The position numbers and the translations under genes were made by a program. A stretch of DNA of 64,000 nucleotides from contig NZ_CP045720.1 of NCBI RefSeq assembly GCF_009646115.1, forward strand, positions 1,488,001 to 1,552,000, read 5' to 3'. This stretch comes from Pantoea eucalypti (GTDB taxonomy: Bacteria; Pseudomonadota; Gammaproteobacteria; Enterobacterales; Enterobacteriaceae). Shown here piece after piece: positions 7,980 through 30,036 of the stretch. Numbering within the stretch: position 1 is the stretch's first letter; each line of letters begins with the position of its first letter. Below the pieces are notes generated by a model that saw only the letters and a program-made list of their open reading frames with translations, did not search any database and was not told the DNA's origin.

Positions 7980-9389
7980 ATGTCCAAGCAACAGATCGGC
8001 GTTGTAGGTATGGCAGTGATGGGCCGCAACCTGGCTCTTAACATTGAGAGCCGCGGTTACACTGTTTCTATCTTCAACCGTTCACGCGAAAAGACTGATG
8101 AAGTCATCGCTGAGAACCAGGGCAAGAAGCTTGCTCCTTTTTACACCGTTGAAGAGTTTGTCGAATCGCTGGAAAAACCTCGTCGTATCCTGCTGATGGT
8201 TCAGGCAGGTGAAGCGACTGATAAGACTATCGCCTCACTGACTCCACACCTGGATAAAGGTGACATCCTGATCGATGGCGGTAACACTTTCTATAAAGAC
8301 ACCATCCGTCGTAACAAAGAGCTTTCTGATCAGGGCTTCAACTTCATCGGTACCGGCGTTTCCGGCGGTGAAGAGGGCGCACTGAAAGGCCCATCAATCA
8401 TGCCTGGCGGTCAGAAAGAAGCGTACGAGCTGGTTGCGCCGATTCTGGATAAGATCGCGGCACGTGCGGAAGATGGCGAAGCCTGTGTGGCTTACATCGG
8501 TCCGGACGGCGCGGGTCACTATGTGAAGATGGTTCACAACGGCATCGAGTATGGCGACATGCAGCTGATCGCTGAAGCTTATGCTCTGCTGAAAGGCGCT
8601 CTGGGCCTGAACAACGAAGAGCTGGCTCAAACCTTCACCGAGTGGAATAACGGCGAGCTGAGCAGCTACCTGATCGACATCACCAAAGATATCTTCACCA
8701 AGAAAGACGAAGAAGGTAAATATCTGGTTGATGTGATTCTGGATGAAGCAGCAAACAAAGGTACCGGTAAATGGACCAGCCAGAGCTCACTGGATCTTGG
8801 CGAGCCTCTGTCACTGATCACCGAGTCTGTTTTTGCCCGTTACCTCTCGTCACTGAAAACGCAGCGCGTTGCGGCCTCTAAAGTACTGAGCGGTCCACAA
8901 GCTAAAGCGTTTACTGGTGACAAAGCAGAGTTCATCGAGAAAGTTCGTCGTGCATTGTACCTGGGTAAAATTGTCTCTTATGCGCAGGGCTTCTCACAGC
9001 TGCGTGCTGCGTCAGAAGAGAACAACTGGGATCTGCATTACGGTGAAATCGCTAAGATCTTCCGCGCGGGTTGCATCATCCGTGCTCAGTTCCTGCAGAA
9101 AATCACTGATGCTTATGAAGCAGATGCAGGCATCGCTAACCTGTTGCTGGCGCCATACTTCAAAGATATCGCGGATCAGTATCAGCAGGCGCTGCGTGAT
9201 GTGGTTTCTTACGCGATTCAGAACGGCATCCCGACGCCAACCTTCTCTGCGGCGATTGCTTACTACGACAGCTACCGTTCAGAAGTGCTGCCTGCCAACC
9301 TGATTCAGGCGCAGCGTGACTACTTTGGTGCGCATACCTATAAGCGCATTGACAAAGATGGTGTGTTCCACACCGAGTGGTTAGATTAA
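7980..9389 (+). CDS. gnd: 6-phosphogluconate dehydrogenase, decarboxylating
   Basis: 469 residues, the usual bacterial length. Catalyses oxidative decarboxylation of 6-phosphogluconate to ribulose 5-phosphate with NADP+, in the cytosolic pentose phosphate pathway. Seen: the N-terminal nucleotide-binding loop [11 protein letters not shown], and [13 protein letters not shown] near residue 183, which carries the catalytic lysine. A GGAG ribosome site lies a few bases before the ATG. Codon use is GC-richer than in the preceding glycan genes, so the composition boundary of the O-antigen locus falls between 7783 and 7980. In enteric bacteria gnd flanks the O-antigen locus and neighbours his, as here. 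Confidence 0.98.
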
Positions 9390-19681: not shown

Positions 19682-20509
19682 ATGAAGAAGGTCGCGATTG
19701 TGGGACTGGGCTGGTTGGGCATGCCGCTGGCCACGGCGTTAACCGCGCGAGGCTGGCAGGTTACCGGCAGCAAAACCACGCCAGACGGTGTTGAAGCCGC
19801 ACGTCGCTGCGGGATTGAGGCGTTCCAGCTGGAACTGACGCCGGAACTGCTCTGTGATGCCGCCGATATTGAGCCGCTGTTCAACGTTGATGCAGTGATC
19901 GTTACGCTGCCCGCCAGCCGCACCGCAGAAGGTGGCGAGGCCTATCTGCAGGCGGTGCAGAATGTGGTGGATACCGCGCTGGTCTACAAAGTGCCGCGCA
20001 TCATCTTTACCAGCTCAACGTCAGTTTATGGCGGCAGTTCAGGTGTTAAGCGGGAAAACAGTCCGCTGGCTGCAGAAACGGTAGCCGGAAAGACGCTGGT
20101 GAAACTGGAAAGCTGGCTGCACGATCTGCCTGGGACCAGCGTGGATATTCTGCGGCTGTCCGGTCTGGTCGGGCCAAAACGCCATCCCGGACGCTTCCTG
20201 GCGGGTAAGCAGGATGTGGCAAATGGCTCGCAGGGCGTGAATCTGGTGCATCTGGATGATGTGGTCGAGGCGATTGCGCTGCTGCTGCAGTCGCCGAAAG
20301 GCGGCCGGGTTTATAACCTTAGTGCGCCGAAACACCCGACGCGTGACACCTTCTATCCAGCGGTTTCGCGCCAGCTTGGGCTGCAGCCGCCGCAGTTCGC
20401 GCCAGAGGCCGTAAAAGACAGCGGCAAGCTGATTGATGGATCGCGCATCTGTAGCGAACTCGGGTTTGAGTATCGCTATGACGATCCGGTGAAGATGCCG
20501 CTGGAGTGA
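19682..20509 (+). CDS. yeeZ: SDR-type NAD(P)-binding protein YeeZ
   Basis: 275 residues, close to E. coli YeeZ (about 274), which also lies divergent from the his leader. A dinucleotide-binding Rossmann motif, IVGLGWLGMPLATAL, starts at residue 5, and a strand ending TSSTSVYGG near 105 carries the SDR-like serine and tyrosine. Members are predicted cytosolic NAD(P)-dependent sugar-nucleotide or related epimerase-like proteins; no reaction is established. The ATG has AGGAG upstream. Shares the 180-base divergent intergenic region with hisL. Confidence 0.92.
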   Translation: MKKVAIVGLGWLGMPLATALTARGWQVTGSKTTPDGVEAARRCGIEAFQLELTPELLCDAADIEPLFNVDAVIVTLPASRTAEGGEAYLQAVQNVVDTALVYKVPRIIFTSSTSVYGGSSGVKRENSPLAAETVAGKTLVKLESWLHDLPGTSVDILRLSGLVGPKRHPGRFLAGKQDVANGSQGVNLVHLDDVVEAIALLLQSPKGGRVYNLSAPKHPTRDTFYPAVSRQLGLQPPQFAPEAVKDSGKLIDGSRICSELGFEYRYDDPVKMPLE

Positions 20510-20876
20510 AAAGTTTCTGAACTGGAAAGCCCTGTGCGTTACTCAAAATAAATGAATTTTCATTTATCAGACGCCGGGGCAAAGGATGTGACTTTGATCG
20601 TTATTAAAGATTATAAGAAATGTTAACCATAAATTCCGTAACCTGCCCACTAACGTTTCTAATGTCGGGTCCAGTCATAGAAGCCGATGAGATGAGAAGA
20701 GACTGGCATCACTTTTACGTTAACGATAACGGCAAAAAATTAGTAAGCTTAACCTTTCCCTGGGATTTCATTTTCAGTATCATCGCCGGCGTTCAGTTTA
20801 TGTCAGAAAAATAACAGTTCATCGCTTTGGGCCGGAGCTGGCGGCCTTGATATTGGGTAAAATTTGGAGATAGCGG
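20510..20876. other. Intergenic region between yeeZ and the glycan cassette
   Basis: 367 bases, AT-richer toward the right, marking the left edge of the seven-gene cassette. It presumably holds the cassette promoter, but no convincing -35/-10 pair with proper spacing was found, and no JUMPstart/ops (GGCGGTAG) element was seen. A doubtful 64-codon frame lies inside at 20620-20814. Confidence 0.6.
20620..20814 (+). CDS. Doubtful small ORF upstream of the cassette
   Basis: A 64-codon frame whose C-terminal half (RRDWHHFYVNDNGKKLVS and a hydrophobic stretch) looks more protein-like than a random frame. No good Shine-Dalgarno precedes any of its ATG codons. It could be a remnant of a larger gene or chance. 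I do not recognise it. Confidence 0.2.
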   Translation: MLTINSVTCPLTFLMSGPVIEADEMRRDWHHFYVNDNGKKLVSLTFPWDFIFSIIAGVQFMSEK

Positions 20877-21995
20877 ATGTTGGCACAAAAGAATATAGCT
20901 ATCGCTGGGGGCGGGTTTTTTGGCTTGTATCTGGCAGAGCAACTTGCGCTTCGCGGTTGCTGCGTGACTGTATATGAAAAAAGCCAGCACCTGATGTCCC
21001 GCGCTTCATATGTTAACCAGGCACGAGTGCACAATGGTTATCATTACCCGCGCAGTATTCTTACTGCCCTGCGTTCTCGCTTATCATTCCCACGCTTCGT
21101 TAATGAATTTCGTGATTGTATTGATGATGAATTCGAAAAATATTATCTGATTGCAGGCTCATTGAGCAAAGTGACGGCTGAGCAGTTCAGGCGTTTTTGT
21201 CAGCGTATTGGCGCAGACTGTGAAGAAGCACCATCTTCTGTCACAAAAATGGTCAATCCGGCTCTGATTGATACTATATTCACTACCACAGAGTATGCTT
21301 TCGACTCCTTTAAATTACGCGATGTAATGATAGAACGCCTTTCACAGGCCGGGGTGCGCGTTATTACAGATGCAGTCGTTGAAAAAGTCTGGACTTATAA
21401 TGATGGTCTAAAACTTGCTGTCACAATCTCCGGCGAGCAGGACATCGTCTATGCTGACCATCTCTTCAACTGTACTTACTCAAGAATCAACTATTTACTG
21501 AATAGTTCCGGGCTTGAACTCATTCCATTGCGTCATGAAATGACTGAAATGTGTCTGGTCGACGTTCCTGACGAATTCAGGAAAATGGGATTGACGGTAA
21601 TGTGTGGCCCTTTCTTTTCCGTAATGCCTTTTCCTTCAGCACAATTGCATTCTTTCAGCCATGTTCGCTACACACCTCACTATCAATGGCGGGATGATGC
21701 AGGCAACCCGTATGAAGACTCACATGCAAAATATGACGAATATTCACGTCAATCTGCATGGGGGCATATGATTCGTGATGCACAGCGTTATGTTCCTGCC
21801 TTAAGTGAATGCAAATATGAGCGTTCTATATGGGAAGTCAAAACTATTCTGCCTCGAAGTGATAGTGATGATTCCAGGCCCATCCTTTTCCGTAAAAATC
21901 ACGGTCTGAAGGGGTTGCATTGCATTATGGGTGGGAAAATAGACAACGTTTATGATGTTTTGCAAGAAATTGAGCGACTAATAGAGTTGAACTAA
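20877..21995 (+). CDS. FAD-dependent oxidoreductase (cassette gene 1)
   Basis: 372 residues. The N-terminus is a clear FAD-binding Rossmann loop, IAIAGGGFFGLYLAEQL, followed by an acidic strand end VTVYEKS near residue 37 that would bind the ribose. The body resembles DAO/UDP-galactopyranose-mutase-like flavoproteins, with YVNQARVHNGYHYPRS near 50. A soluble cytosolic enzyme is expected. In this cassette it may oxidise or ring-contract a sugar or lipid-linked precursor (inference). GGAGA lies 6 bases before the ATG. The next gene begins 2 bases after its stop. AT-rich relative to yeeZ. Confidence 0.75.
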   Translation: MLAQKNIAIAGGGFFGLYLAEQLALRGCCVTVYEKSQHLMSRASYVNQARVHNGYHYPRSILTALRSRLSFPRFVNEFRDCIDDEFEKYYLIAGSLSKVTAEQFRRFCQRIGADCEEAPSSVTKMVNPALIDTIFTTTEYAFDSFKLRDVMIERLSQAGVRVITDAVVEKVWTYNDGLKLAVTISGEQDIVYADHLFNCTYSRINYLLNSSGLELIPLRHEMTEMCLVDVPDEFRKMGLTVMCGPFFSVMPFPSAQLHSFSHVRYTPHYQWRDDAGNPYEDSHAKYDEYSRQSAWGHMIRDAQRYVPALSECKYERSIWEVKTILPRSDSDDSRPILFRKNHGLKGLHCIMGGKIDNVYDVLQEIERLIELN

Positions 21996-21997
21996 AA

Positions 21998-23002
21998 ATG
22001 ATAAAAAGTGAATCCTTTGTTTCTGTCGTTACCGTTATTCATGGGCATCTTGAAGAGGTTTATGAACCGCTTAGAAAGTTAAGCCTGACGCTGGACGAAA
22101 GTTACAGCGATTATGAAATTGTCGTCGTCGTTCCGGGCGTAAATTCTACACACGCGCAAATTGAAGACCGTATTTTAAAAGACATAAACTGCGTCCGGAT
22201 TATTCTGCTTTCCACGCCGGTTTATCATGATGTTGCGCTTGCCGCTGGTCTGGAAAACGCGATTGGAGACTTTGTTGTTCTGTGGAACCCCGCTGCTGAT
22301 CCGGTTGAAATTGTTCCTCAGGTCGTCGAGCAATGCCGTGCGGGAAGCGATATCGTTATCGGAGTAACAAATAAAGTCCGTTCGCTACGTTATAGACTTA
22401 TTCGAAAAATGATGAATGTCGCATTACGTACGATTGATTACGATATTCCGGCTAACTCAACCAGTTTGCGTTGTTTAAGCCGCAGGGCAGTTAACGCCGT
22501 TACAAGAATTGGTAAATTTCATCACCAGTTCTATCTGCGCATCCAAAAAACGGGATACGCTGCATCAGCTTTCAATTACATGCCAGTAAAAGAAAATGAG
22601 GGTGCAAAAATCGTTGAATCCATGCGACGTTTACTTCGTCTGATGGTTTTCAATTCTGCACGTCCTTTGCGCTGGATGTCTATGCTTGGATTCTTTGGCA
22701 GCGTAGCAGGATTAATCTTTGCCTGTTACAGCGTGCTCATTCACCTGATAGATGGTCACGTTGTTGAAGGCTGGACAACAACCATTCTTTTCATGTCCGT
22801 TATGTTTATTATCCAGTTCGTGATGATGGCCTTTTTTGGCGAATATCTGGGAAGAATGCTGGATGAAAACAGCGCTCAGGCTGGTTATGCAGTTGTTTAT
22901 GAACGCAATAGTGATGTCATGGTTAATGCAGACAGGGTCAATGTTCTGGAGACGTCACTTATGCAGGAACCTAACAACGTCCAGACCGGGCGCGATAAAT
23001 AA
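21998..23002 (+). CDS. GtrB/ArnC-like GT2 with C-terminal membrane helices (cassette gene 2)
   Basis: 334 residues. A GT2 domain (about 1-215) starts FVSVVTVIHG. Two hydrophobic helices follow near 227-250 and 262-285, as in polyisoprenyl-phosphate glycosyltransferases such as GtrB and ArnC, which load a sugar onto undecaprenyl phosphate at the inner face of the inner membrane. Oddity: where such enzymes usually carry an acidic DxDxQDPP-type run, this protein reads VVLWNPAADPVE near residue 100, lacking the first aspartates. It may be inactive, metal-independent or a structural partner. Start and end are tightly packed in the operon. Confidence 0.75.
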   Translation: MIKSESFVSVVTVIHGHLEEVYEPLRKLSLTLDESYSDYEIVVVVPGVNSTHAQIEDRILKDINCVRIILLSTPVYHDVALAAGLENAIGDFVVLWNPAADPVEIVPQVVEQCRAGSDIVIGVTNKVRSLRYRLIRKMMNVALRTIDYDIPANSTSLRCLSRRAVNAVTRIGKFHHQFYLRIQKTGYAASAFNYMPVKENEGAKIVESMRRLLRLMVFNSARPLRWMSMLGFFGSVAGLIFACYSVLIHLIDGHVVEGWTTTILFMSVMFIIQFVMMAFFGEYLGRMLDENSAQAGYAVVYERNSDVMVNADRVNVLETSLMQEPNNVQTGRDK

Positions 23003-23017
23003 ATTCTGGAGATGAAG

Positions 23018-23791
23018 ATGGATGCACTTATTGGTTTTTCAGGTTTTGTCGGTCAGACACTGCTTAAACAGCGTGAGTTTGACTCGCTTTACCGTTCAAC
23101 AAATATTGATGAAATTATTGGCCAGTTATTTGGAACGGTCGTCTGCGCTGCTGCGCCTGCTCAGAAATGGCTGGCAAATAAAGAGCCTGAGAACGATCTT
23201 AAACACATTGAAAGTCTGATCGAAAAACTGAAAACCATCAATTGTGAAAAATTCATATTGATAAGCACAGTGGACGTTTTTAAAACGCCTGTAAACGTTG
23301 ACGAAAACACGCCTGTCGAAACAGACGGATTACATGCGTATGGTCTGCATCGTTACTACCTTGAGCAATTCGTGAGTCAGCATTTTCCGGATGCATTGAT
23401 CGTTCGCTTACCTGGTCTGGTAGGGCCGGGATTAAAGAAAAATATCATTTACGATTTCCTTAACAATAATAATCTCAATCAAATTGAAAGCCGTGGCGTA
23501 TTTCAGTTCTATCCCATGATCAACCTTTGGTATGACATTGAGATTGCTTTGAAAAACGACATCAGGCTGTTACATCTTACCGCAGCCCCTGTCAGCGTTG
23601 CAGATGTGGCCAAATATGGCTTCGGATTTGATTTTGAAAATCACGTGCAGCAGCAGCCCGGACATTATGATATGAAAAGCTGCTATTCTCATCTTTATAC
23701 GGACGGCAAAGATTATCAATACAGCTACCGTGAATCACTGATGTCGATTCGTGCTTATGCTCAATCCGAGCCAGGAAAGAAACCTGAATGA
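23018..23791 (+). CDS. NAD-dependent epimerase/dehydratase-like SDR (cassette gene 3)
   Basis: 257 residues. The glycine loop GFSGFVGQTLL at about residue 6 binds a dinucleotide; LISTVDVF near 83 supplies the SDR serine/threonine region. The catalytic YxxxK is changed to YGLHR near 107, with arginine for lysine. RLPGLVGPG near 130 is typical of sugar-nucleotide epimerases and dehydratases. It would act in the cytosol on an activated sugar (inference). The ATG at 23018 has GGAG at the proper 6-base distance; another ATG at 23012 abuts the Shine-Dalgarno and is less likely. Its end overlaps the next gene by 4 bases. Confidence 0.7.
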   Translation: MDALIGFSGFVGQTLLKQREFDSLYRSTNIDEIIGQLFGTVVCAAAPAQKWLANKEPENDLKHIESLIEKLKTINCEKFILISTVDVFKTPVNVDENTPVETDGLHAYGLHRYYLEQFVSQHFPDALIVRLPGLVGPGLKKNIIYDFLNNNNLNQIESRGVFQFYPMINLWYDIEIALKNDIRLLHLTAAPVSVADVAKYGFGFDFENHVQQQPGHYDMKSCYSHLYTDGKDYQYSYRESLMSIRAYAQSEPGKKPE

Positions 23792-24621
23792 ATATTTCCA
23801 TTTCGAATATCGCATGGGACATTAAAGATGATGACGCAGTGCGTGCACTTCTTCATTGTCATCATATCCATGCTATCGATATTGCGCCTGGAAAATATTT
23901 TCCAGACCCAAAATCAGCGAGTGATAAAGAGATTCTTGCCGTTCGAAATTATTGGGAATCGCAGGAGATTTCTCTGGTCGGGATGCAGTCACTCCTGTTT
24001 GGCACACAGGGCTTGAATCTGTTTGATGAGCCGTCTGTACAACAGAAAATGCTGGAACATTTACAGGCAGTGAGCCATGTTGCAGCAGGATTAGGCATTA
24101 CACGTTTAGTGTTTGGTTCACCCAAAAATCGTTATCGACCGGCTATCAGCGATGAAGCTTCATGCGCGATCGCACTCCGCTTCTTCACGCTTTTGGGGGA
24201 CATTGCACGTCAGGAAGGCGTTGTTATTTGTCTGGAGCCTAATCCAGAGTGTTATGGCGCTAACTTCATGACCAGCAGTGCAGAGACGGCTAAGATGGTA
24301 CGGCTTGTTAATCATTCAGCCATTAAAATGCAACTGGATACCGGGGCTATTGCGATTAACGGCGAAGATGTGGCTCAGGTAATCAGTGGTAATGAGGATA
24401 TTATCGGCCATGTACATCTTAGTGAACCGAACCTTATAGCGCTGGGGCGAAGTGCTGTGAATCATGCTGATGTAGCCGCAGTGTTGAATCGTATGCTTCC
24501 GCAGCGTATTGCCACTATTGAAATGCTGGTCTCTAAAAATGAGAACGCTTTAATGGTTATTGACGAGTCTCTTAAATTTGTGACTGAGCATTATCGGAAG
24601 ACGCCGGGAGATGTTTCATGA
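23788..24621 (+). CDS. Sugar-phosphate isomerase/epimerase-like TIM barrel (cassette gene 4)
   Basis: 277 residues of the xylose-isomerase-like/AP-endonuclease-2 fold. Likely metal ligands are seen in the expected order: Glu in CLEPNPECYG near 149, Asp in QLDTGAI near 182, His in GHVHLSEPN near 211 and a late Glu in IEM near 252. Such enzymes isomerise or epimerise sugars or polyols in the cytosol; the substrate is unknown. Overlaps both neighbours by 4 bases (ATGA), so translation is coupled. Together with the FAD enzyme and the SDR it suggests synthesis of an unusual sugar. Confidence 0.75.
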   Translation: MNISISNIAWDIKDDDAVRALLHCHHIHAIDIAPGKYFPDPKSASDKEILAVRNYWESQEISLVGMQSLLFGTQGLNLFDEPSVQQKMLEHLQAVSHVAAGLGITRLVFGSPKNRYRPAISDEASCAIALRFFTLLGDIARQEGVVICLEPNPECYGANFMTSSAETAKMVRLVNHSAIKMQLDTGAIAINGEDVAQVISGNEDIIGHVHLSEPNLIALGRSAVNHADVAAVLNRMLPQRIATIEMLVSKNENALMVIDESLKFVTEHYRKTPGDVS

Positions 24622-24974
24622 AATGGTTAATCCTGATTTTAGGTATAGCCTGCAATGCTTCTGCCAGCGTGCTTATTAAGTTAGCGATGACGCCTCCACG
24701 CAGGCTTCCCAGTTTGTCCGAACCTTTAGCAGTGCTGAGTAATTTCCCGCTGTTATTGGGAATATTTCTCTATGGCATGGCTTTCCTGCTTTATGCCGCA
24801 ACACTGGCATTTTTACCCTTAAACGTGGCACATCCTGTTTTAACCTCAGGCGCTATTGCCTGTGTTGCCTTAATGTCAGTTGTGCTATTCAAAGAACCTG
24901 TTTACTGGTCCACTATTGCCGGCATTTTGATGGTAATAGCCGGCGTTGTACTTATTACCCTAAAAGTTAAATAA
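24618..24974 (+). CDS. Small four-helix SMR/EamA-type membrane protein, putative lipid-linked sugar flippase (cassette gene 5)
   Basis: 118 residues with four predicted membrane helices, the size and layout of SMR proteins and of ArnE/ArnF. The first helix, LGIACNASASVLIKLAM, aligns with EmrE, but the proton-coupling glutamate (EmrE Glu14) is asparagine here. That argues against a drug/proton antiporter and for an ArnE/F- or GtrA-like role: moving an undecaprenyl-phosphate sugar across the inner membrane (inference). It begins inside the preceding stop (ATGA) and precedes a GT2 gene by one base. Confidence 0.75.
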   Translation: MKWLILILGIACNASASVLIKLAMTPPRRLPSLSEPLAVLSNFPLLLGIFLYGMAFLLYAATLAFLPLNVAHPVLTSGAIACVALMSVVLFKEPVYWSTIAGILMVIAGVVLITLKVK

Positions 24975-24975
24975 G

Positions 24976-25794
24976 ATGGAAAAGAATATGAGTGAATCTT
25001 TAAATATAAAAAATACTGACTGGGAAGTTCCATCTTATGAGCGTCAGTTATGGCAGGGTAAACAGCATAATTATTGCGTGATCATTCCCGTCATCAACGA
25101 AGGGGAACGCATCCGCAATCTGTTAAGCCGAATGGCTGCAGTAAATGTCCATACCTATGCAGACATTATCATTGTTGACGGTGGAAGTCGGGATGGTTCA
25201 CTTGAACTTTCAGCGCTGAAACAACTTTCGGTTTGCGGTCTGCTACTTAAAACTGGCCCGGGTAAGTTAAGTTCTCAGCTGCGTTGTGGATATGCTTTTG
25301 CTCTGGAGCAGGGTTATGAAGGTATCGTAACGATTGATGGGAATGATAAAGACGATCCGGATGCCATTCCTCAGTTCATTGAGGCACTGAAACAGGGTTA
25401 TGATTTTGTTCAGGCATCCCGTTTTGTCAAAGGTGGCGTTGCTGAGAATACACCTGCTTCACGTGATTTTGCTATCCGTTTTATTCATGCACCAATGCTC
25501 TCACTTTTTTCCGGCTTCAAGTGGACCGATACGACACAGGGCTTCCGTGCATATAGCCGAAAAATGCTGCTTGATCCGCGCGTTGCACCGTTTCGCAATA
25601 TTTTTCAGACTTACGAATTACTGGCCTATCTTTCTTATCGCGCACCTAAATTAGGGTTCCGCTGTATCGAAATCGCAACAGTTCGCCGTTATCCAAAAGG
25701 CGAAGTACCAACTAAAATTAGTGCTATTAGTGGGAATTGGGCAGTATTGTCGATTTTATTTTCTGCTTGCTTCGGCAAGTATAATATCAAATAA
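24976..25794 (+). CDS. GT2, polyprenol-phosphate glycosyltransferase-like (cassette gene 6)
   Basis: 272 residues. A DPM1/GtrB-like GT-A domain: VIIPVINEGERI near residue 36, IIVDGGSRDGS near 62, and an intact acidic run TIDGNDKDDPD near 120. QGFRAYSRKML near 190 is typical of the family. No clear C-terminal membrane helices, unlike cassette gene 2. It could load a sugar onto a polyprenyl phosphate or elongate it at the cytoplasmic face. ATG at 24976 follows the previous stop by one base; an in-frame ATG at 24988 has a better GGAAA(AG) site and may be the true start. Confidence 0.78.
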   Translation: MEKNMSESLNIKNTDWEVPSYERQLWQGKQHNYCVIIPVINEGERIRNLLSRMAAVNVHTYADIIIVDGGSRDGSLELSALKQLSVCGLLLKTGPGKLSSQLRCGYAFALEQGYEGIVTIDGNDKDDPDAIPQFIEALKQGYDFVQASRFVKGGVAENTPASRDFAIRFIHAPMLSLFSGFKWTDTTQGFRAYSRKMLLDPRVAPFRNIFQTYELLAYLSYRAPKLGFRCIEIATVRRYPKGEVPTKISAISGNWAVLSILFSACFGKYNIK

Positions 25795-25822
25795 TTAAAT
25801 AAAGGTTAGGCAGAACTCAGCT

Positions 25823-28132
25823 ATGATTACACTGTCGCATATAAATGTTCTGAAACAGAATGAAACCACGGCAGAGCTCTTCAAGCTCTGCCAGTTTTTT
25901 ATGTTGATGTTCGCAATCATTGTTGTTGAAATGAATCAACAGCCACTCATAATATCACTAGACCGCGTGCTGGAACAATGGTCAACTCTTTTACCAGATT
26001 TTTTTGTAGGTAAACAGGATTTCTTATTTAGTTATGGACCGTTATATTGGCTTCAGGGGAGTCCGGTAGTACAATACTCACAAGCAAGTTATTTTATTTC
26101 GTTGTTTTTTATAAGCCTTTATTGTGCTTTAAACTGGGCTTTGATGTTGAGATTAGCTATTAACGCCCGTTGCGTGTTTTTTTTTGCTGTAATTTATATC
26201 GTTTTTATTAAAGTTTATAATGCTTACGCCGTATTCTTCACTTTGCCTTTATTTATTATAGTGTATCTTCGCCAAAATAGTCTGGATAAACTTTGGGATA
26301 AAAAAATATTCCTGTCTGCGGCAGCGTTGCTTGTGGCTTTTTTATTTTACTTTCGTTTTTTTTACGGAATCGTTGGGGTGCTTACAATAGGTAGTTACTT
26401 AGTCTCAACTCACTTATTAGGACGGCGCCATTTATCTCCTGTTGCTTTTTTCCTCAGTGTTACAGTATTGCTCTATATTATTTTTGGATCGTTGATATTT
26501 CGCGACTCATACAGTATTGTAAATTATGCGCTGATAAATTCACAACTGAGTTTTGGTAACTCTGTTGATATGAATTATGATTTAGACATAAAAGAACAAG
26601 CCTATTATATTATTTTTGCAATTTTTATTTTGTTTAACTTCTATCTTGTTAAATGTCAGCGAACATTGTTTTTAACAGTTAACGGTTTGTTGCTTATTTT
26701 TGTGAAAATTGGTTTTTCACGAGCAGATCATTATATCTCTTATTTTATAATGCCTGTCGCACTCTTTTCTTTGTTAATTCTTGTCAGCAATTACAAGTAT
26801 AAATACTTGTTGGCTGGGTTAATTTTATCGCTTCTTTTTTATCTTGGTAATATGCCTATTTATAATGGAGCTAAACGGATTGATGTTTTTAGCACTCATG
26901 AGGATTTTTCTAAAAGCTTAAAGGAACGCGCGGCAGAACGTCATCATAAATTTAAGTTACCGCAGGATGTTATTGCTGAAGTGGGCAATAGTACTATCGA
27001 TGTATATCCATATAATAATGAATATACTACTGCCAATAAACTAAATTACTGGCATCGCCCATCATTTCAAAACTATATGACATTAACACCCAAATTGGAT
27101 CAGTTGAATGCTGATTTTTACGAAGGAAATGATAAGCCAGAGTATGTATTATGGACAGCCAGTATTACTTGTGTTTCTAACGATTGCAGTGTTTTTGATG
27201 ATTTTGATGGGAAATATATTCTCAATGAAGATCCATTAACAACGATGGCGATTTTGAAAAATTATAAATCGGTGCGTGTTATATTTGATCTTAATCATAA
27301 GCCTATCATGCTTATGAAAAAGACTCCTAATGCTCAGGACCTAAACATAAAAAAAACAGGTGACATAAAGATTAAATTCGGTGAGTGGATTAAGATACCG
27401 CGCACTGATGATGTGATAGTAAAGTTAAAGCCTCAGTTTAGAATGACTATTTTAGCCAGGCTCCAGAATTTATTCTTCCATGGATCCGTCATTTATGTAA
27501 ATTACAGGCTTTTTAACGGAGAAATAAAACGATATCGTCTTAACATCATCAATGCTCAAAGTGGAGTATGGATTTCACCATTACTGGACTCTTTACCGCT
27601 ACAGGGGCAGCGTGTGTCAGAGGTTATGATTGAAACAACAGATAAACACTACTTTGAACCACAATTTAAAGCGCATTTTGTAGAATATCAATTTAGCGGT
27701 ATTAGTATCGATGAGAAAATTGCACCTCGCTTTACATCTTATAAGCCTGCAGGACTGTCTAATTCTGTTGCCGTGTGTGTTGCCACCATTGATAAGCTGA
27801 AGCAATCAAATTTTACGCTTGATAATGTCGTTTCTAAGAGATTAACGAGCGAGGGATGGGCTGCATATTCAATAGAGAAAAACCTTGCTCCGCAAGCGAT
27901 ATGGCTGACGCTGCAGGATGAGCAAGGACGGAAGTTCTTTGTACCTGCAGATAAAACTTTAAGGCAGGATGTGGCAAATGCCTTTAACAAACCGGATCTG
28001 GTTAACGCGGGATATAAAGTGTTTGCTGATATCACACCTTTCAAAGGTCAATATAAAGCTGGCCTTGCAATTGCGGGAGAAGGGAAGCTAATTGAATGTG
28101 ACAATTTCGCACAACCCATCACAATTCAATAA
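25823..28132 (+). CDS. Large polytopic membrane protein, putative GT-C-like glycan transferase (cassette gene 7)
   Basis: 769 residues. About 10-11 hydrophobic helices fill the first 350 residues, followed by a soluble region of some 400 residues. Between the first helices a loop reads VGKQDFLFSYGPLYW near residue 65, reminiscent of the first periplasmic loop of GT-C enzymes, where an acidic residue is catalytic. The layout (membrane core plus large periplasmic domain) suits a transferase taking sugar from a lipid carrier outside the inner membrane (inference). I do not recognise a named family. It is the most AT-rich gene in the window apart from the O-antigen block. A weak Shine-Dalgarno (AAAGG) precedes the ATG. 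A strong terminator follows. Confidence 0.65.
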   Translation: MITLSHINVLKQNETTAELFKLCQFFMLMFAIIVVEMNQQPLIISLDRVLEQWSTLLPDFFVGKQDFLFSYGPLYWLQGSPVVQYSQASYFISLFFISLYCALNWALMLRLAINARCVFFFAVIYIVFIKVYNAYAVFFTLPLFIIVYLRQNSLDKLWDKKIFLSAAALLVAFLFYFRFFYGIVGVLTIGSYLVSTHLLGRRHLSPVAFFLSVTVLLYIIFGSLIFRDSYSIVNYALINSQLSFGNSVDMNYDLDIKEQAYYIIFAIFILFNFYLVKCQRTLFLTVNGLLLIFVKIGFSRADHYISYFIMPVALFSLLILVSNYKYKYLLAGLILSLLFYLGNMPIYNGAKRIDVFSTHEDFSKSLKERAAERHHKFKLPQDVIAEVGNSTIDVYPYNNEYTTANKLNYWHRPSFQNYMTLTPKLDQLNADFYEGNDKPEYVLWTASITCVSNDCSVFDDFDGKYILNEDPLTTMAILKNYKSVRVIFDLNHKPIMLMKKTPNAQDLNIKKTGDIKIKFGEWIKIPRTDDVIVKLKPQFRMTILARLQNLFFHGSVIYVNYRLFNGEIKRYRLNIINAQSGVWISPLLDSLPLQGQRVSEVMIETTDKHYFEPQFKAHFVEYQFSGISIDEKIAPRFTSYKPAGLSNSVAVCVATIDKLKQSNFTLDNVVSKRLTSEGWAAYSIEKNLAPQAIWLTLQDEQGRKFFVPADKTLRQDVANAFNKPDLVNAGYKVFADITPFKGQYKAGLAIAGEGKLIECDNFAQPITIQ

Positions 28133-28160
28133 GTTAATTTAAGCCTCAATAGTAACTAAC

Positions 28161-28183
28161 AAGGGAGCTTTGCTCCCTTTTTT
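28161..28183 (+). terminator. Rho-independent terminator closing the cassette
   Basis: An 8-bp stem (28161-28168 with 28172-28179) with a TTT loop and a T-run to 28183. It separates the cassette from the convergent puuB gene. Confidence 0.9.
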
Positions 28184-29459
28184 ATACTCCCAATCGGTCC
28201 CTCAGCGCGTACCACACCGCGCCCATCGCCGTCAGCGGCACTTTAAACCGCCGTCCGCCGGGAAAGGGCAGGTGAGGCAGGCGGGCAAAAGCATCGAACC
28301 GTTCGGCGTCGCCGCGTAACACTTCGCTGATTAGCTTGCCGGAGAGATGCGTGCTGGTCACACCATGGCCGCTGTCGCCCTGCATGAAATAGACATTGTT
28401 CTCCAGCCGGCCAAACTGCGGCATGCGCGACAGCGTCAGCAGGAAATTGCCGCTCCAGCTGAAGTCCAGCTTCACATTCTGCAACTGCGGGAACGTGCGC
28501 GCCAGTTTGGGTCGTATTAACGCTTCGATATCCGCCGGTTCACGTGCGCCATAGACCACACCGCCGCCATAAAGTAGCCGGTTATCTGCGGTCAGTCGGA
28601 AGTAATCCAGCAGATAGTTACAATCTTCCACACAGTAGTTGTTCGGCATCAGCGATAACGCCTGGTCGGGTGTCAGCGGCTCGGTCGCGACAATCTGCGA
28701 TCCACACGGCATGCTTTTCCTGCTCAGGCGCGGCTCCAGTTGCGGTGACAGATAGGCGTTACCGGCGAAGATCACAAACGTTGCGCTCACCTCGCCCTGA
28801 GCCGTTTTCACCCGATTAGGTGTGCCATAAACCACATTGGTTGCCGCAGACTGTTCATAGATGCGACCGCCATGTCGCCGGATGGCTTCTGCTTCACCCA
28901 GTGCCAGGTTCAGCGGATGCAGATGACCGCCACGCCGATCCAGCAGTCCACCGACGTAGCGTTCGGTGGCGACTTCGCGGCGAATGGCGCGTTCGTCCAG
29001 CAGCTCCAGATCGTGATTGCCATACTGCTGCCATAACGCTTTCTGTTTCTGCAGATGCGCCATCTGGCGCGTATTCAGGGCCGCAAAGATGCCGCCAGGA
29101 CGGTAGTCACACTCAATTGCATACCGCTTGATGCGGTCGCGGATAATCTCAGCGCCTTCAAACATCATGCCGCCCAGCATGCGGGCGCTCTCTTTGCCGT
29201 AACGCTGTTCAATCACATCCACGTCGCGGCTGTAGGAGTTCACCACCTGACCGCCGTTACGGCCGCTGGCACCAAAGCCGACGCGTGCTGCTTCCAGCAC
29301 GACCACGTCGTAACCCACCTCGGTCAGATGCAGTGCCGCCGAAAGACCGGTGAAACCACCGCCAATAATGCAGACGTCACACTGAATACTCTCCTGCAGC
29401 GTCGGCCAGGGCGCATGCGTATTGGCGGTCGCAGCGTAATAACTCTCCACATAATTCAT
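28182..29459 (-). CDS. puuB: Gamma-glutamylputrescine oxidase
   Basis: 425 residues, strongly similar to E. coli PuuB. FAD loop CIIGGGFTGLSAALHL near residue 29; GFGASGRNGGQVVNSYSRD near 62; C-terminal MQGDSGHGVTSTHL near 370. It oxidises gamma-glutamylputrescine to gamma-glutamyl-gamma-aminobutyraldehyde, with H2O2 and ammonia released. The start MNYVESYY at 29459 matches the E. coli protein; a frame to 29564 has no support. puuR ends 19 bases upstream, so the operon order is puuD-puuR-puuB. puuC, the aldehyde dehydrogenase for the next step in E. coli, is absent between them. Confidence 0.96.
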   Translation of the reverse strand: MNYVESYYAATANTHAPWPTLQESIQCDVCIIGGGFTGLSAALHLTEVGYDVVVLEAARVGFGASGRNGGQVVNSYSRDVDVIEQRYGKESARMLGGMMFEGAEIIRDRIKRYAIECDYRPGGIFAALNTRQMAHLQKQKALWQQYGNHDLELLDERAIRREVATERYVGGLLDRRGGHLHPLNLALGEAEAIRRHGGRIYEQSAATNVVYGTPNRVKTAQGEVSATFVIFAGNAYLSPQLEPRLSRKSMPCGSQIVATEPLTPDQALSLMPNNYCVEDCNYLLDYFRLTADNRLLYGGGVVYGAREPADIEALIRPKLARTFPQLQNVKLDFSWSGNFLLTLSRMPQFGRLENNVYFMQGDSGHGVTSTHLSGKLISEVLRGDAERFDAFARLPHLPFPGGRRFKVPLTAMGAVWYALRDRLGV

Positions 29460-29478
29460 AACAACCTCCGGAATGCGC

Positions 29479-30036
29479 CTAGAAATTTGCTGGTGTGTGG
29501 GCACTGACAATGCGGCACGGGAAGTCTGCACTGTTGGTAAAGCTGTGCGGTAAGCCGGTATCAATCACGTAGCTCTCTCCGGCGGAGAGATGAAACGCTT
29601 GTCCGTTAATCACCAGCGTAATTTCGCCTTCCAGCAGCGTACCGGTTTCCTCGCCCGGATGACGCAGTTTCTCGCCGGTACTGGCGCCGGGTTGATACGT
29701 TTCCAGCAGCATGCCCAGCGAGCGCTGCGCACCACCGTTGTCGATGAGCTTCAGCGAAACACCCTGGCTGCCAATCTCCACCAGGTCGCCGGGACGGACA
29801 ATCACTTTGGGTTCTGCGTCCGGTTTGGGTTCCGAAAAGAATTCTGACAGCGATAGCCCATAAACCTTCAGCAGCTTCTGCAGCGTGCTGACTGCCGGGC
29901 TGACTTTATCCTGCTCAATGGTACTGATGGCGCTGTGAGTCAGTCCGGCCTGTTCGGCAACCCGACGTTGCGACAGCCCCAGCGTCTGGCGAATCTGCGC
30001 CAGCCGTCGTCCCGGTGCCAGCGTGGCATCACTCAT
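29479..30036 (-). CDS. puuR: HTH-type repressor of the putrescine pathway
   Basis: 185 residues, same length as E. coli PuuR. An N-terminal Xre-type helix-turn-helix (GLSQRRVAEQAGLTHSAIS near 25-45) is followed by a C-terminal cupin domain (GEETGTLLEGEITLVING near 120-140). E. coli PuuR represses puu promoters and is released by putrescine. Start MSDATLAPG at 30036 matches the family; the 5' end overlaps puuD by 8 bases. It probably acts on the puuD-puuA divergent region. Confidence 0.95.
   Translation of the reverse strand: MSDATLAPGRRLAQIRQTLGLSQRRVAEQAGLTHSAISTIEQDKVSPAVSTLQKLLKVYGLSLSEFFSEPKPDAEPKVIVRPGDLVEIGSQGVSLKLIDNGGAQRSLGMLLETYQPGASTGEKLRHPGEETGTLLEGEITLVINGQAFHLSAGESYVIDTGLPHSFTNSADFPCRIVSAHTPANF

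What the first reader, a model, noticed from the sequence alone, without database searches (positions are those of the whole stretch)
20877..28132. Seven-gene AT-rich cassette that reads as a self-contained lipid-linked-sugar pathway
Seen: seven tightly packed genes on one strand (overlaps of 4 bases or gaps of 1-28), from an FAD enzyme through a GtrB/ArnC-like GT2, an SDR, a TIM-barrel isomerase, a four-helix SMR-like protein and a second GT2 to a 769-residue membrane protein, closed by a strong terminator. Known: O-antigen glucosylation (Gtr) and lipid A aminoarabinose (Arn) systems use a polyprenyl-phosphate GT2, a small flippase and a membrane GT-C transferase. Inference: this cassette makes an unusual sugar (three enzymes), loads it on undecaprenyl phosphate, flips it and transfers it outside. 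It lies between yeeZ and puuB, without phage genes.
Basis: partly seen in the sequence, partly recalled or inferred. Interest (0 to 1): 0.75.

Follow-up and report, generated by a model that had tools for sequence, protein, structure and literature searches.

The report
Seven-gene O-antigen side-sugar cassette
A Pantoea genome carries a compact, movable set of seven genes that most likely makes a rare deoxy sugar on a lipid carrier and attaches it as a side branch to the polysaccharide coat, and relatives of six of the seven sit where E. coli O162 is thought to encode the same kind of decoration.

Summary
Seven packed, AT-rich genes (20877-28132) replace a short yeeZ-puuB spacer in a Pantoea genome. 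The block is a real unit: 15 of 16 loci fetched through the last gene carry A, B, C, D and F beside it. It occurs on plasmids too, and in 5 of 5426 E. coli genomes at near identity; in the 4 whose gene tables I opened it lies between gnd and ugd. PMC13168486 states that E. coli O162 differs from O101 by a 4-deoxy-D-arabino-hexose branch and that genes directly downstream of gnd are suspected, with a transposon there in O101; I see uninterrupted and IS4-interrupted copies. The host has ABC-transporter O-antigen genes 21-23 kb upstream. The same Pantoea site holds GtrA/GT2 cassettes in 8 of 11 otherwise occupied sites. Six genes form a conserved donor module; the last, a probable GT-C transferase, is interchangeable. 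The first GT2 lacks DXD in 20 of 20 copies; the second is the likely loader. Best reading: a lipid-carrier O-antigen side-branch system for 4-deoxy-D-arabino-hexose or a close relative. The enzymology is inferred, not shown.

The parts
20510..28183 (.). Insert relative to empty yeeZ-puuB sites of close Pantoea relatives (ends approximate); it replaces a spacer of roughly 150-170 bases
   Evidence: Local alignments to 4 empty relatives end at 20509-20520 on the left and begin at 28175-28186 on the right; only short chance-like repeats around it
20877..21995 (+). A: FAD-dependent DAO-family oxidoreductase, proposed sugar oxidase
   Evidence: PF01266 E 4e-18; region RASYxNQARVHNGYHYPRS mostly invariant in 17 sequences
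21998..23002 (+). B: ArnC/GtrB-like GT2 (C-terminal membrane part by homology) without a DXD motif; proposed membrane partner of F
   Evidence: ArnC structures E 3e-16; DXD absent in 20 of 20 copies; one open frame with F in Psychrobacter
23012..23791 (+). C: extended SDR-like reductase/epimerase with Y-x3-R where SDRs have Y-x3-K (recalled)
   Evidence: PF01370 E 2e-4, just above cut-off; Tyr110 and Arg114 in 19 of 19 copies
23788..24621 (+). D: PF01261 sugar isomerase/epimerase/dehydratase-like TIM barrel with conserved E150, D184, H210, E245
   Evidence: the four residues in 19 of 19 copies
24618..24974 (+). E: SMR-like protein, proposed lipid-linked-sugar flippase (ArnE/F role)
   Evidence: EamA and SMR models; ArnF model E 4e-7, QacCGHJ 3e-8, all below cut-off; no acidic residue at positions 10-21 in 17 of 17 copies
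24976..25794 (+). F: Dpm1-like GT2, proposed polyprenyl-phosphate sugar synthase
   Evidence: PF00535 E 1e-12; dolichol-phosphate mannose synthase E 1e-11; natural fusions to membrane proteins
25823..28132 (+). G: 769-aa membrane protein with C-terminal beta domains, proposed GT-C side-branch transferase
   Evidence: AlphaFold2 model mean pLDDT 80.7; AftA, OST and DPY19 are the long structural alignments; D66 invariant and E51 nearly invariant in 20 sequences
28161..28179 (+). Intrinsic terminator-like hairpin closing the block
19682..20509 (+). yeeZ, left flank of the site (not part of the block)
   Evidence: 64% identical to E. coli yeeZ
28182..29564 (-). puuB-like FAD oxidoreductase, right flank of the site (not part of the block)
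   Evidence: PF01266 E 4e-71

Best explanation
The block is a self-contained side-branch modification system for the cell's ABC-transporter-dependent O-antigen. F, probably together with its membrane partner B, puts a hexose on undecaprenyl phosphate. A, D and C remodel the sugar by oxidation, isomerisation or dehydration, and reduction; whether before or after loading is open. E flips the lipid-linked sugar and G transfers it as a side branch onto the exported O-polysaccharide. The sugar is most likely 4-deoxy-D-arabino-hexose, the O162 side sugar of E. coli, or a close relative. Six genes are the conserved donor module; G sets the acceptor and is exchanged or diverges. Shown here: gene content, co-occurrence, sites, motifs, fusions. 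Inferred: every enzymatic step and the sugar.
For: Co-occurrence in 15 of 16 loci. E. coli orthologues at 53-70% identity, block between gndA and ugd; the O89/O101/O162-type wzm/wzt are seen in the two regions fetched widely enough. Of 5 near-identical E. coli copies, two are uninterrupted, one has IS4 at the start of A, one has that IS4 broken by an IS3 element, and the fifth (H26) was judged from its hit row only. PMC13168486 (passages): O162 carries a 4-deoxy-D-arabino-hexose branch that O101 lacks; genes directly downstream of gnd are suspected, with a transposon in O101. Own genome: galF-, galE-, rmlBDAC-like genes (by inspection) and wzm/wzt matches upstream of gnd. The same Pantoea site holds GtrA plus GT2 cassettes, one with GtrII PF14264. 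GtrA beside the Sulfurimonas block that lacks SMR. F-G fusion P0072, F fused to GT87-type (PF09594) and other membrane proteins, B-F fusions P0121 and P0122. In L009-L012 G is the most divergent gene: 75, 51, 46, 39% against 84-99, 69-86, 68-90, 54-76% for the other six; five last genes after the same module share no blastp match at E <= 1.
Confidence: 0.66

Rival explanations
1. Same architecture, different sugar: the module makes another unusual hexose (for example an epimerised or keto sugar) that decorates the O-antigen.
For: D is nearest to IolO and D-psicose 3-epimerase models and weakly to the 3-keto-D-glucoside 4-epimerase; donor genes are only 53-70% identical to E. coli.
Against: All six donor genes are shared with the E. 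coli block in the same order, and the tested residues of C, D and E are shared.
Confidence: 0.2
2. The acceptor is not the O-antigen but another surface glycan (LPS core, exopolysaccharide, enterobacterial common antigen).
For: In Pantoea the block lies outside the O-antigen locus; no wzm/wzt match in the fetched stretches of L012, L013, L015, L017, L019, L020, L022, L024 and L082-L084, and only weak ABC matches in L023.
Against: Blocks lie in or near ABC-type O-antigen loci in two kinds of E. coli, Sulfurimonas and two Caballeronia, and the Pantoea site also hosts a GtrII-type glucosyltransferase cassette.
Confidence: 0.15
3. Two separate lipid-linked sugars are made, one by B and one by F, so that a disaccharide branch is built.
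For: Two GT2 genes; Franconibacter pulveris O1 is described as having a side chain of two 4-deoxy-D-arabino-hexose residues (PMC11231755, passage).
Against: B has lost DXD in 20 of 20 copies and is one open frame with F in Psychrobacter, which suits one enzyme pair.
Confidence: 0.12
4. A drug-export or amino-acid oxidation operon, with the glycosyltransferases incidental.
For: RefSeq calls E an EmrE protein in E. coli; Qac models score above ArnF; A belongs to the DAO family.
Against: No acidic residue at positions 10-21 of E in 17 of 17 copies; repeated co-occurrence with GT2 and GT-C-like genes.
Confidence: 0.02

Closest known systems
E. coli O162 genes downstream of gnd (4-deoxy-D-arabino-hexose side branch, hypothesised in print)
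   Same: Same first six genes in the same order, a membrane protein last, ABC-transporter O-antigen host
   Different: Last gene (452 aa) has no sequence similarity to G; the Pantoea block sits at yeeZ-puuB, outside the O-antigen locus
Gtr three-component O-antigen glucosylation (GtrA, GtrB, Gtr-type transferase)
   Same: Polyprenyl-phosphate GT2, small flippase-like protein, specific membrane transferase; Gtr cassettes occupy the very same site in other Pantoea
   Different: SMR-like protein instead of GtrA, an extra DXD-less GT2, and three sugar-modifying enzymes on board
Arn (lipid A aminoarabinose) system
   Same: ArnC-like protein, SMR-type small membrane protein, GT-C-like transferase; sugar-making enzymes encoded alongside
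   Different: No ArnA, ArnB or ArnD model hit among the seven; B lacks DXD; linked to O-antigen loci, not shown for lipid A
Mycobacterial decaprenyl-phosphate arabinose pathway (DprE1/DprE2, AftA; recalled)
   Same: FAD oxidase plus SDR in one pathway and a GT-C (AftA) that tops the long structural alignments of G
   Different: A is DAO family; an added TIM barrel; no sequence relation shown

Membership tests
E. coli O162-type side-branch block | Six donor genes A-F in order, followed by a membrane protein | tested here: met
E. coli O162-type side-branch block | Product is 4-deoxy-D-arabino-hexose | not testable with these tools
   Needs chemistry; stated for O162 in PMC13168486
E. coli O162-type side-branch block | Host makes an ABC-transporter-dependent O-antigen | tested here: met
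   Gene level only: wzm and wzt matches of 58% and 43% in L081 upstream of gnd
Gtr three-component system | GtrA-type flippase (PF04138) | tested here: not met
   E matches EamA/SMR models, not PF04138, at E <= 0.001
Gtr three-component system | Polyprenyl-phosphate sugar GT2 | tested here: met
   By homology: F PF00535 and Dpm1-like; B and F match phrog_841 GtrB-like
Gtr three-component system | Polytopic GT-C-type specific transferase | tested here: inconclusive
Arn system | ArnC equivalog score | tested here: not met
   B scores 63 bits against a cut-off of 529
SMR drug exporters | Membrane-embedded Glu in helix 1 (recalled) | tested here: not met
   No Asp or Glu at positions 10-21 in 17 of 17 copies; position 13 is Asn in all; the PDB alignment to EmrE did not cover helix 1, so the register is mine
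Active GT2 with DXD (gene B) | DXD motif | tested here: not met
   One-residue deletion at the second Asp in 20 of 20 copies, beside three GtrB proteins that keep DXD
PF01261 metal-dependent sugar isomerases (gene D) | Glu-Asp-His-Glu metal site (recalled) | tested here: met
   19 of 19 copies; E150, D184, H210 align with D-psicose 3-epimerase residues of the same kind

The most novel reading that the evidence does not exclude
The sugar is deoxygenated while attached to polyprenyl phosphate: F loads glucose, A oxidises C2, D acts like myo-inosose dehydratase (IolE, same PF01261 superfamily) to remove the 4-OH and give a 2,3-diketone, and C reduces both carbonyls. This predicts exactly the differences between D-glucose and 4-deoxy-D-arabino-hexose: inversion at C2 and C3 and loss of oxygen at C4. 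It would be a lipid-linked deoxysugar pathway, unlike the nucleotide-linked routes known to me.
Probability: 0.3. Interest if true: 0.8.

Novelty: new variant of a known kind. Interest (0 to 1): 0.6.

Why it matters
4-deoxy-D-arabino-hexose is reported from O-antigens of E. coli, Citrobacter and Franconibacter, but I found no characterised biosynthesis in the papers searched. This gives a six-gene candidate donor module present in several bacterial lineages, a short list of testable enzyme steps, a probable non-catalytic glycosyltransferase partner, and a surface-modification hotspot (yeeZ-puuB) in Pantoea where this cassette and Gtr cassettes alternate. It could let serotype and phage-receptor variation be predicted from genomes.

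Tried and rejected
Foldseek of the G model against PDB gave nothing at E <= 0.001, and against BFVD one match at 7e-4 with TM 0.09, which I read as noise from beta domains. An E. coli near search with the whole Pantoea block found nothing; a distant search with the Phytobacter block found the E. coli copies. A distant plasmid search with the whole block gave 3 records, of which one, pA22P4, carries the module. PDB searches with G and C gave no hit, and D none at 1e-6 and 12 weak ones at 0.1. Repeats around the insert are short and chance-like, so no integrase-type duplication is seen. A class-wide search with C found one further strong match (G320) and two weak ones in 369 genomes, so the block is patchy; the two weak ones show no other block gene in the fetched flanks. 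Free nucleotide-sugar synthesis before loading was considered and not excluded. An earlier count said 14 of 16 loci; a recount gives 15 of 16.

The only structural model of A was made without an alignment by oversight and is useless (pLDDT 32.6); nothing rests on it. It used the last structure job, so the membrane domain of G alone was not modelled.

The distance from the O-antigen genes was corrected from 26 kb to 21-23 kb.
Full report
What is there. Their GC is 36-46% against 52% for the window, with G lowest. Named relatives of the block's last gene at the same site are Pantoea, so I take the genome as Pantoea. Family scans give A a DAO-type FAD enzyme, B an ArnC/GtrB-like GT2 (NCBIfam, PHROGs and PDB, but no Pfam hit), C a weak SDR, D a PF01261 TIM barrel, E an SMR/EamA-like protein, F a GT2, and nothing for G.

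The site. A yeeZ search found it in 60 of 61 genus genomes; the 30 best were fetched, so the sample leans to close relatives. Of these 30, 2 hold the block, 17 have the puuB-like gene directly behind yeeZ (16 with gaps of 14-176 bases, one with 646), and 11 hold something else. Against four empty relatives homology ends at 20509-20520 and resumes at 28175-28186. I fetched all 11 other sites: 8 encode a GtrA plus a GT2 beside it (L071-L075, L077, L079, L080). Pfam confirmed GtrA in L071, L072 and L079, and a GtrII-type transferase in L071; the rest rest on similarity to these. Of the other three, one has a sulfatase-type protein (L070) and two have genes that look metabolic from sequence (L076, L078, not family-tested). 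L010 has both a GtrA/GtrB pair and the block. Five of 61 genus genomes have gene C, and all five have the block at yeeZ-puuB: the window, L009, L010, L011, and G006, where gene A is split by a prophage-like element. Two Erwinia loci have it at the same site (L012, L013).

Co-occurrence. A genome-contig scan with the alignment of G returned 16 loci; 15 carry A, B, C, D and F next to G, with E detected in 13. L016 is the exception. Starting from C instead, the six genomes with strong matches (five genus genomes, and G320 among 369 class genomes) all show A, C, D, E and F around it; B is seen in five, and G320's fetched 3.7 kb has no B. In the Sulfurimonas locus L014, E is missing and a GtrA protein follows A. 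In Acerihabitans (L022) E is also missing, with no replacement seen. An IMG/VR contig with phage-like genes carries G beside an acyltransferase and none of the other six (L025). Two Pantoea genomes have a distant G (23-24%) without the block in the fetched flanks (L006, L007).

Fusions. In Psychrobacter plasmid pA22P4, B and F are one open frame of 592 residues; P0122 is a second such protein. F is fused to a G-type protein in P0072. Of the 120 listed (of 698) matches to the B-F protein, 29 are longer proteins (488-980 aa) that cover 42-45% of it, the size of F. I read six of these: each has an F domain followed by a long hydrophobic region, by eye; P0217, P0220 and P0224 carry PF09594, recalled as GT87. 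F therefore works with membrane transferases.

Motifs. B lacks DXD in 20 of 20 copies, whereas three GtrB proteins from Pantoea gtr cassettes keep it; F has Asp-Gly-Asn in 16 of 16. C has Tyr110 and Arg114 in 19 of 19, Arg standing where SDRs have Lys (recalled). D keeps Glu150, Asp184, His210, Glu245 in 19 of 19, and the first three align with D-psicose 3-epimerase. E has Asn at position 13 in 17 of 17 and no Asp or Glu at 10-21; drug-exporter models nevertheless score slightly above ArnF, all far below cut-off.

The E. coli link. A distant search with the Phytobacter block found 7 of 5426 E. coli genomes, 6 with most of the query. In NCTC10973 the order is gndA, A-F, a 452-aa protein, ugd, next to wzm/wzt annotated O89/O101/O162. 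SY3626 has the block behind another ABC-type locus with rfbBADC genes, and plasmid pCUPF09A carries it between insertion elements. A near search with the NCTC10973 block finds 5 genomes, each covering the whole query: NCTC10973 and 2017.17.03CC uninterrupted, SCPM-O-B-12142 with IS4 at the start of A, SCPM-O-B-7615 with that IS4 itself broken by an IS3 element, and SCPM-O-B-9504, whose hit row looks like 7615 but whose gene table I did not open. PMC13168486 (outline, passages and two of three parts of the reference list seen) says that O162 has an added 4-deoxy-D-arabino-hexose side branch and that genes directly downstream of gnd are hypothesised to modify O162 but not O101 because of a transposon insertion in the latter, citing Liu et al. 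2020 (not held, not seen). The structure paper for O162 (Shashkov 2017) was seen only as a title. Passages of PMC4732683 and PMC6128206 agree that O101 and O162 clusters are nearly identical and that further genes lie distal to gnd in O89, without naming a sugar. Identity of the Pantoea genes to NCTC10973 is A 63, B 56, C 60, D 53, E 67, F 70%; the five last genes compared share no blastp match at E <= 1. Franconibacter pulveris O1, also ABC-dependent, has such residues in its side chain (PMC11231755, passage and reference title), and Citrobacter braakii O6 contains the sugar (title in the references of PMC5530964); I could not check their genomes by name.

The host's own O-antigen. Upstream of the window lie galF-, galE- and rmlBDAC-like genes (named by inspection), then wzm (58% to SY3626) and wzt (43%), 21-23 kb before gene A, followed in the window by a methyltransferase/glycosyltransferase-like protein and others up to gnd at 7980-9389. 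The block thus stands across the his operon from an ABC-type O-antigen locus. wzm/wzt matches also lie near the block in L014, L018 and L021, but not within the fetched stretches of L012, L013, L015, L017, L019, L020, L022, L024 and L082-L084; L023 has only weak ABC matches.

Divergence. In L009 to L012 the G identities are 75, 51, 46 and 39%, while the other six genes lie at 84-99, 69-86, 68-90 and 54-76%. In L014-L021 it is B (23-28%) that is most divergent, with G at 36-39% (L016 has G only). Within Pantoea and Erwinia, a conserved donor with a fast-changing last gene is what a transferase adapting to different O-antigens would show.

How it probably works. F, with B, loads a hexose on undecaprenyl phosphate; E flips it; G transfers it. 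The A/D/C trio makes the sugar. By stereochemistry (my own derivation), 4-deoxy-D-arabino-hexose differs from D-glucose by inversion at C2 and C3 and loss of oxygen at C4. One oxidation at C2, an IolE-like dehydration removing the 4-OH and two reductions would give exactly this with an oxidase, a PF01261 enzyme and a reductase. D matches the IolE model only weakly (1.6e-4) and IolO better (8e-14), so the step is a hypothesis. It parallels DprE1/DprE2 (recalled) if it happens on the lipid.

A prophage in the cassette. In G006 a 50 kb stretch with an integrase-like gene at one end, phage-structural-looking genes and a GtrA-GtrB-transferase cassette at the other lies inside gene A: matches to A residues 5-284 are on one side and 260-372 on the other. 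A phage with its own O-antigen cassette thus interrupts the host's; I describe it and mend nothing.

Not in print, as far as searched. Searches listed no biochemical study of these genes and no description of the block beyond the E. coli O101/O162 statement. The library lacks most subscription journals, including two papers I asked for, so the claim is weak.

Verdict. The finding is real, its interpretation is supported, and the gain is a named sugar hypothesis, a conserved six-gene donor module, a likely non-catalytic GT2 partner and a cassette hotspot. It is a new variant of a known kind rather than a new kind.

Noticed in passing
L085 and L086 (genome G006, about 50 kb between the pieces): A prophage-like element with an integrase-like gene and its own GtrA-GtrB-transferase cassette lies inside gene A of the block; described only, not mended.
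   Followed up: partly
L070-L080 (11 sites between yeeZ and puuB): The yeeZ-puuB interval is a hotspot in Pantoea: GtrA plus GT2 cassettes in 8 of 11 otherwise occupied sites, a sulfatase-type gene in one, metabolic-looking genes in two.
   Followed up: partly
L008 1-10782 (Psychrobacter plasmid pA22P4): A 10.8 kb plasmid with mob genes (typed non-mobilizable by MOB-suite) carries the donor module, with B and F in one open frame and an unrelated membrane protein last.
   Followed up: partly
L028 8887-15746 (E. coli plasmid pCUPF09A): The block lies on a plasmid between insertion elements, near aminoglycoside-resistance genes; described only.
   Followed up: no
L025 2304-5699: An IMG/VR contig with an integrase-like gene and long structural-looking genes carries a G homologue and an acyltransferase without the donor genes, like a serotype-converting pair.
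   Followed up: partly
L016 9833-12157: Pseudomonas sp. JUb42 has a G homologue alone, with none of the other six genes matched in about 10 kb either side.
   Followed up: no
L010 2213-5061: Between yeeZ and the block lie a GtrA/GtrB pair and fragments resembling the yeeZ 3' end, as if two insertions followed each other.
   Followed up: partly
window 20692-20814: A 40-residue ORF upstream of A is 82% conserved in L009; no such match in L011-L013 and only a weak one (32%, E 0.5) in L010. Possible leader peptide or chance.
   Followed up: partly
KF114877.1 13042-13803: Leptospira phage LE1 encodes a protein with 28.6% identity to residues 361-608 of G.
   Followed up: no
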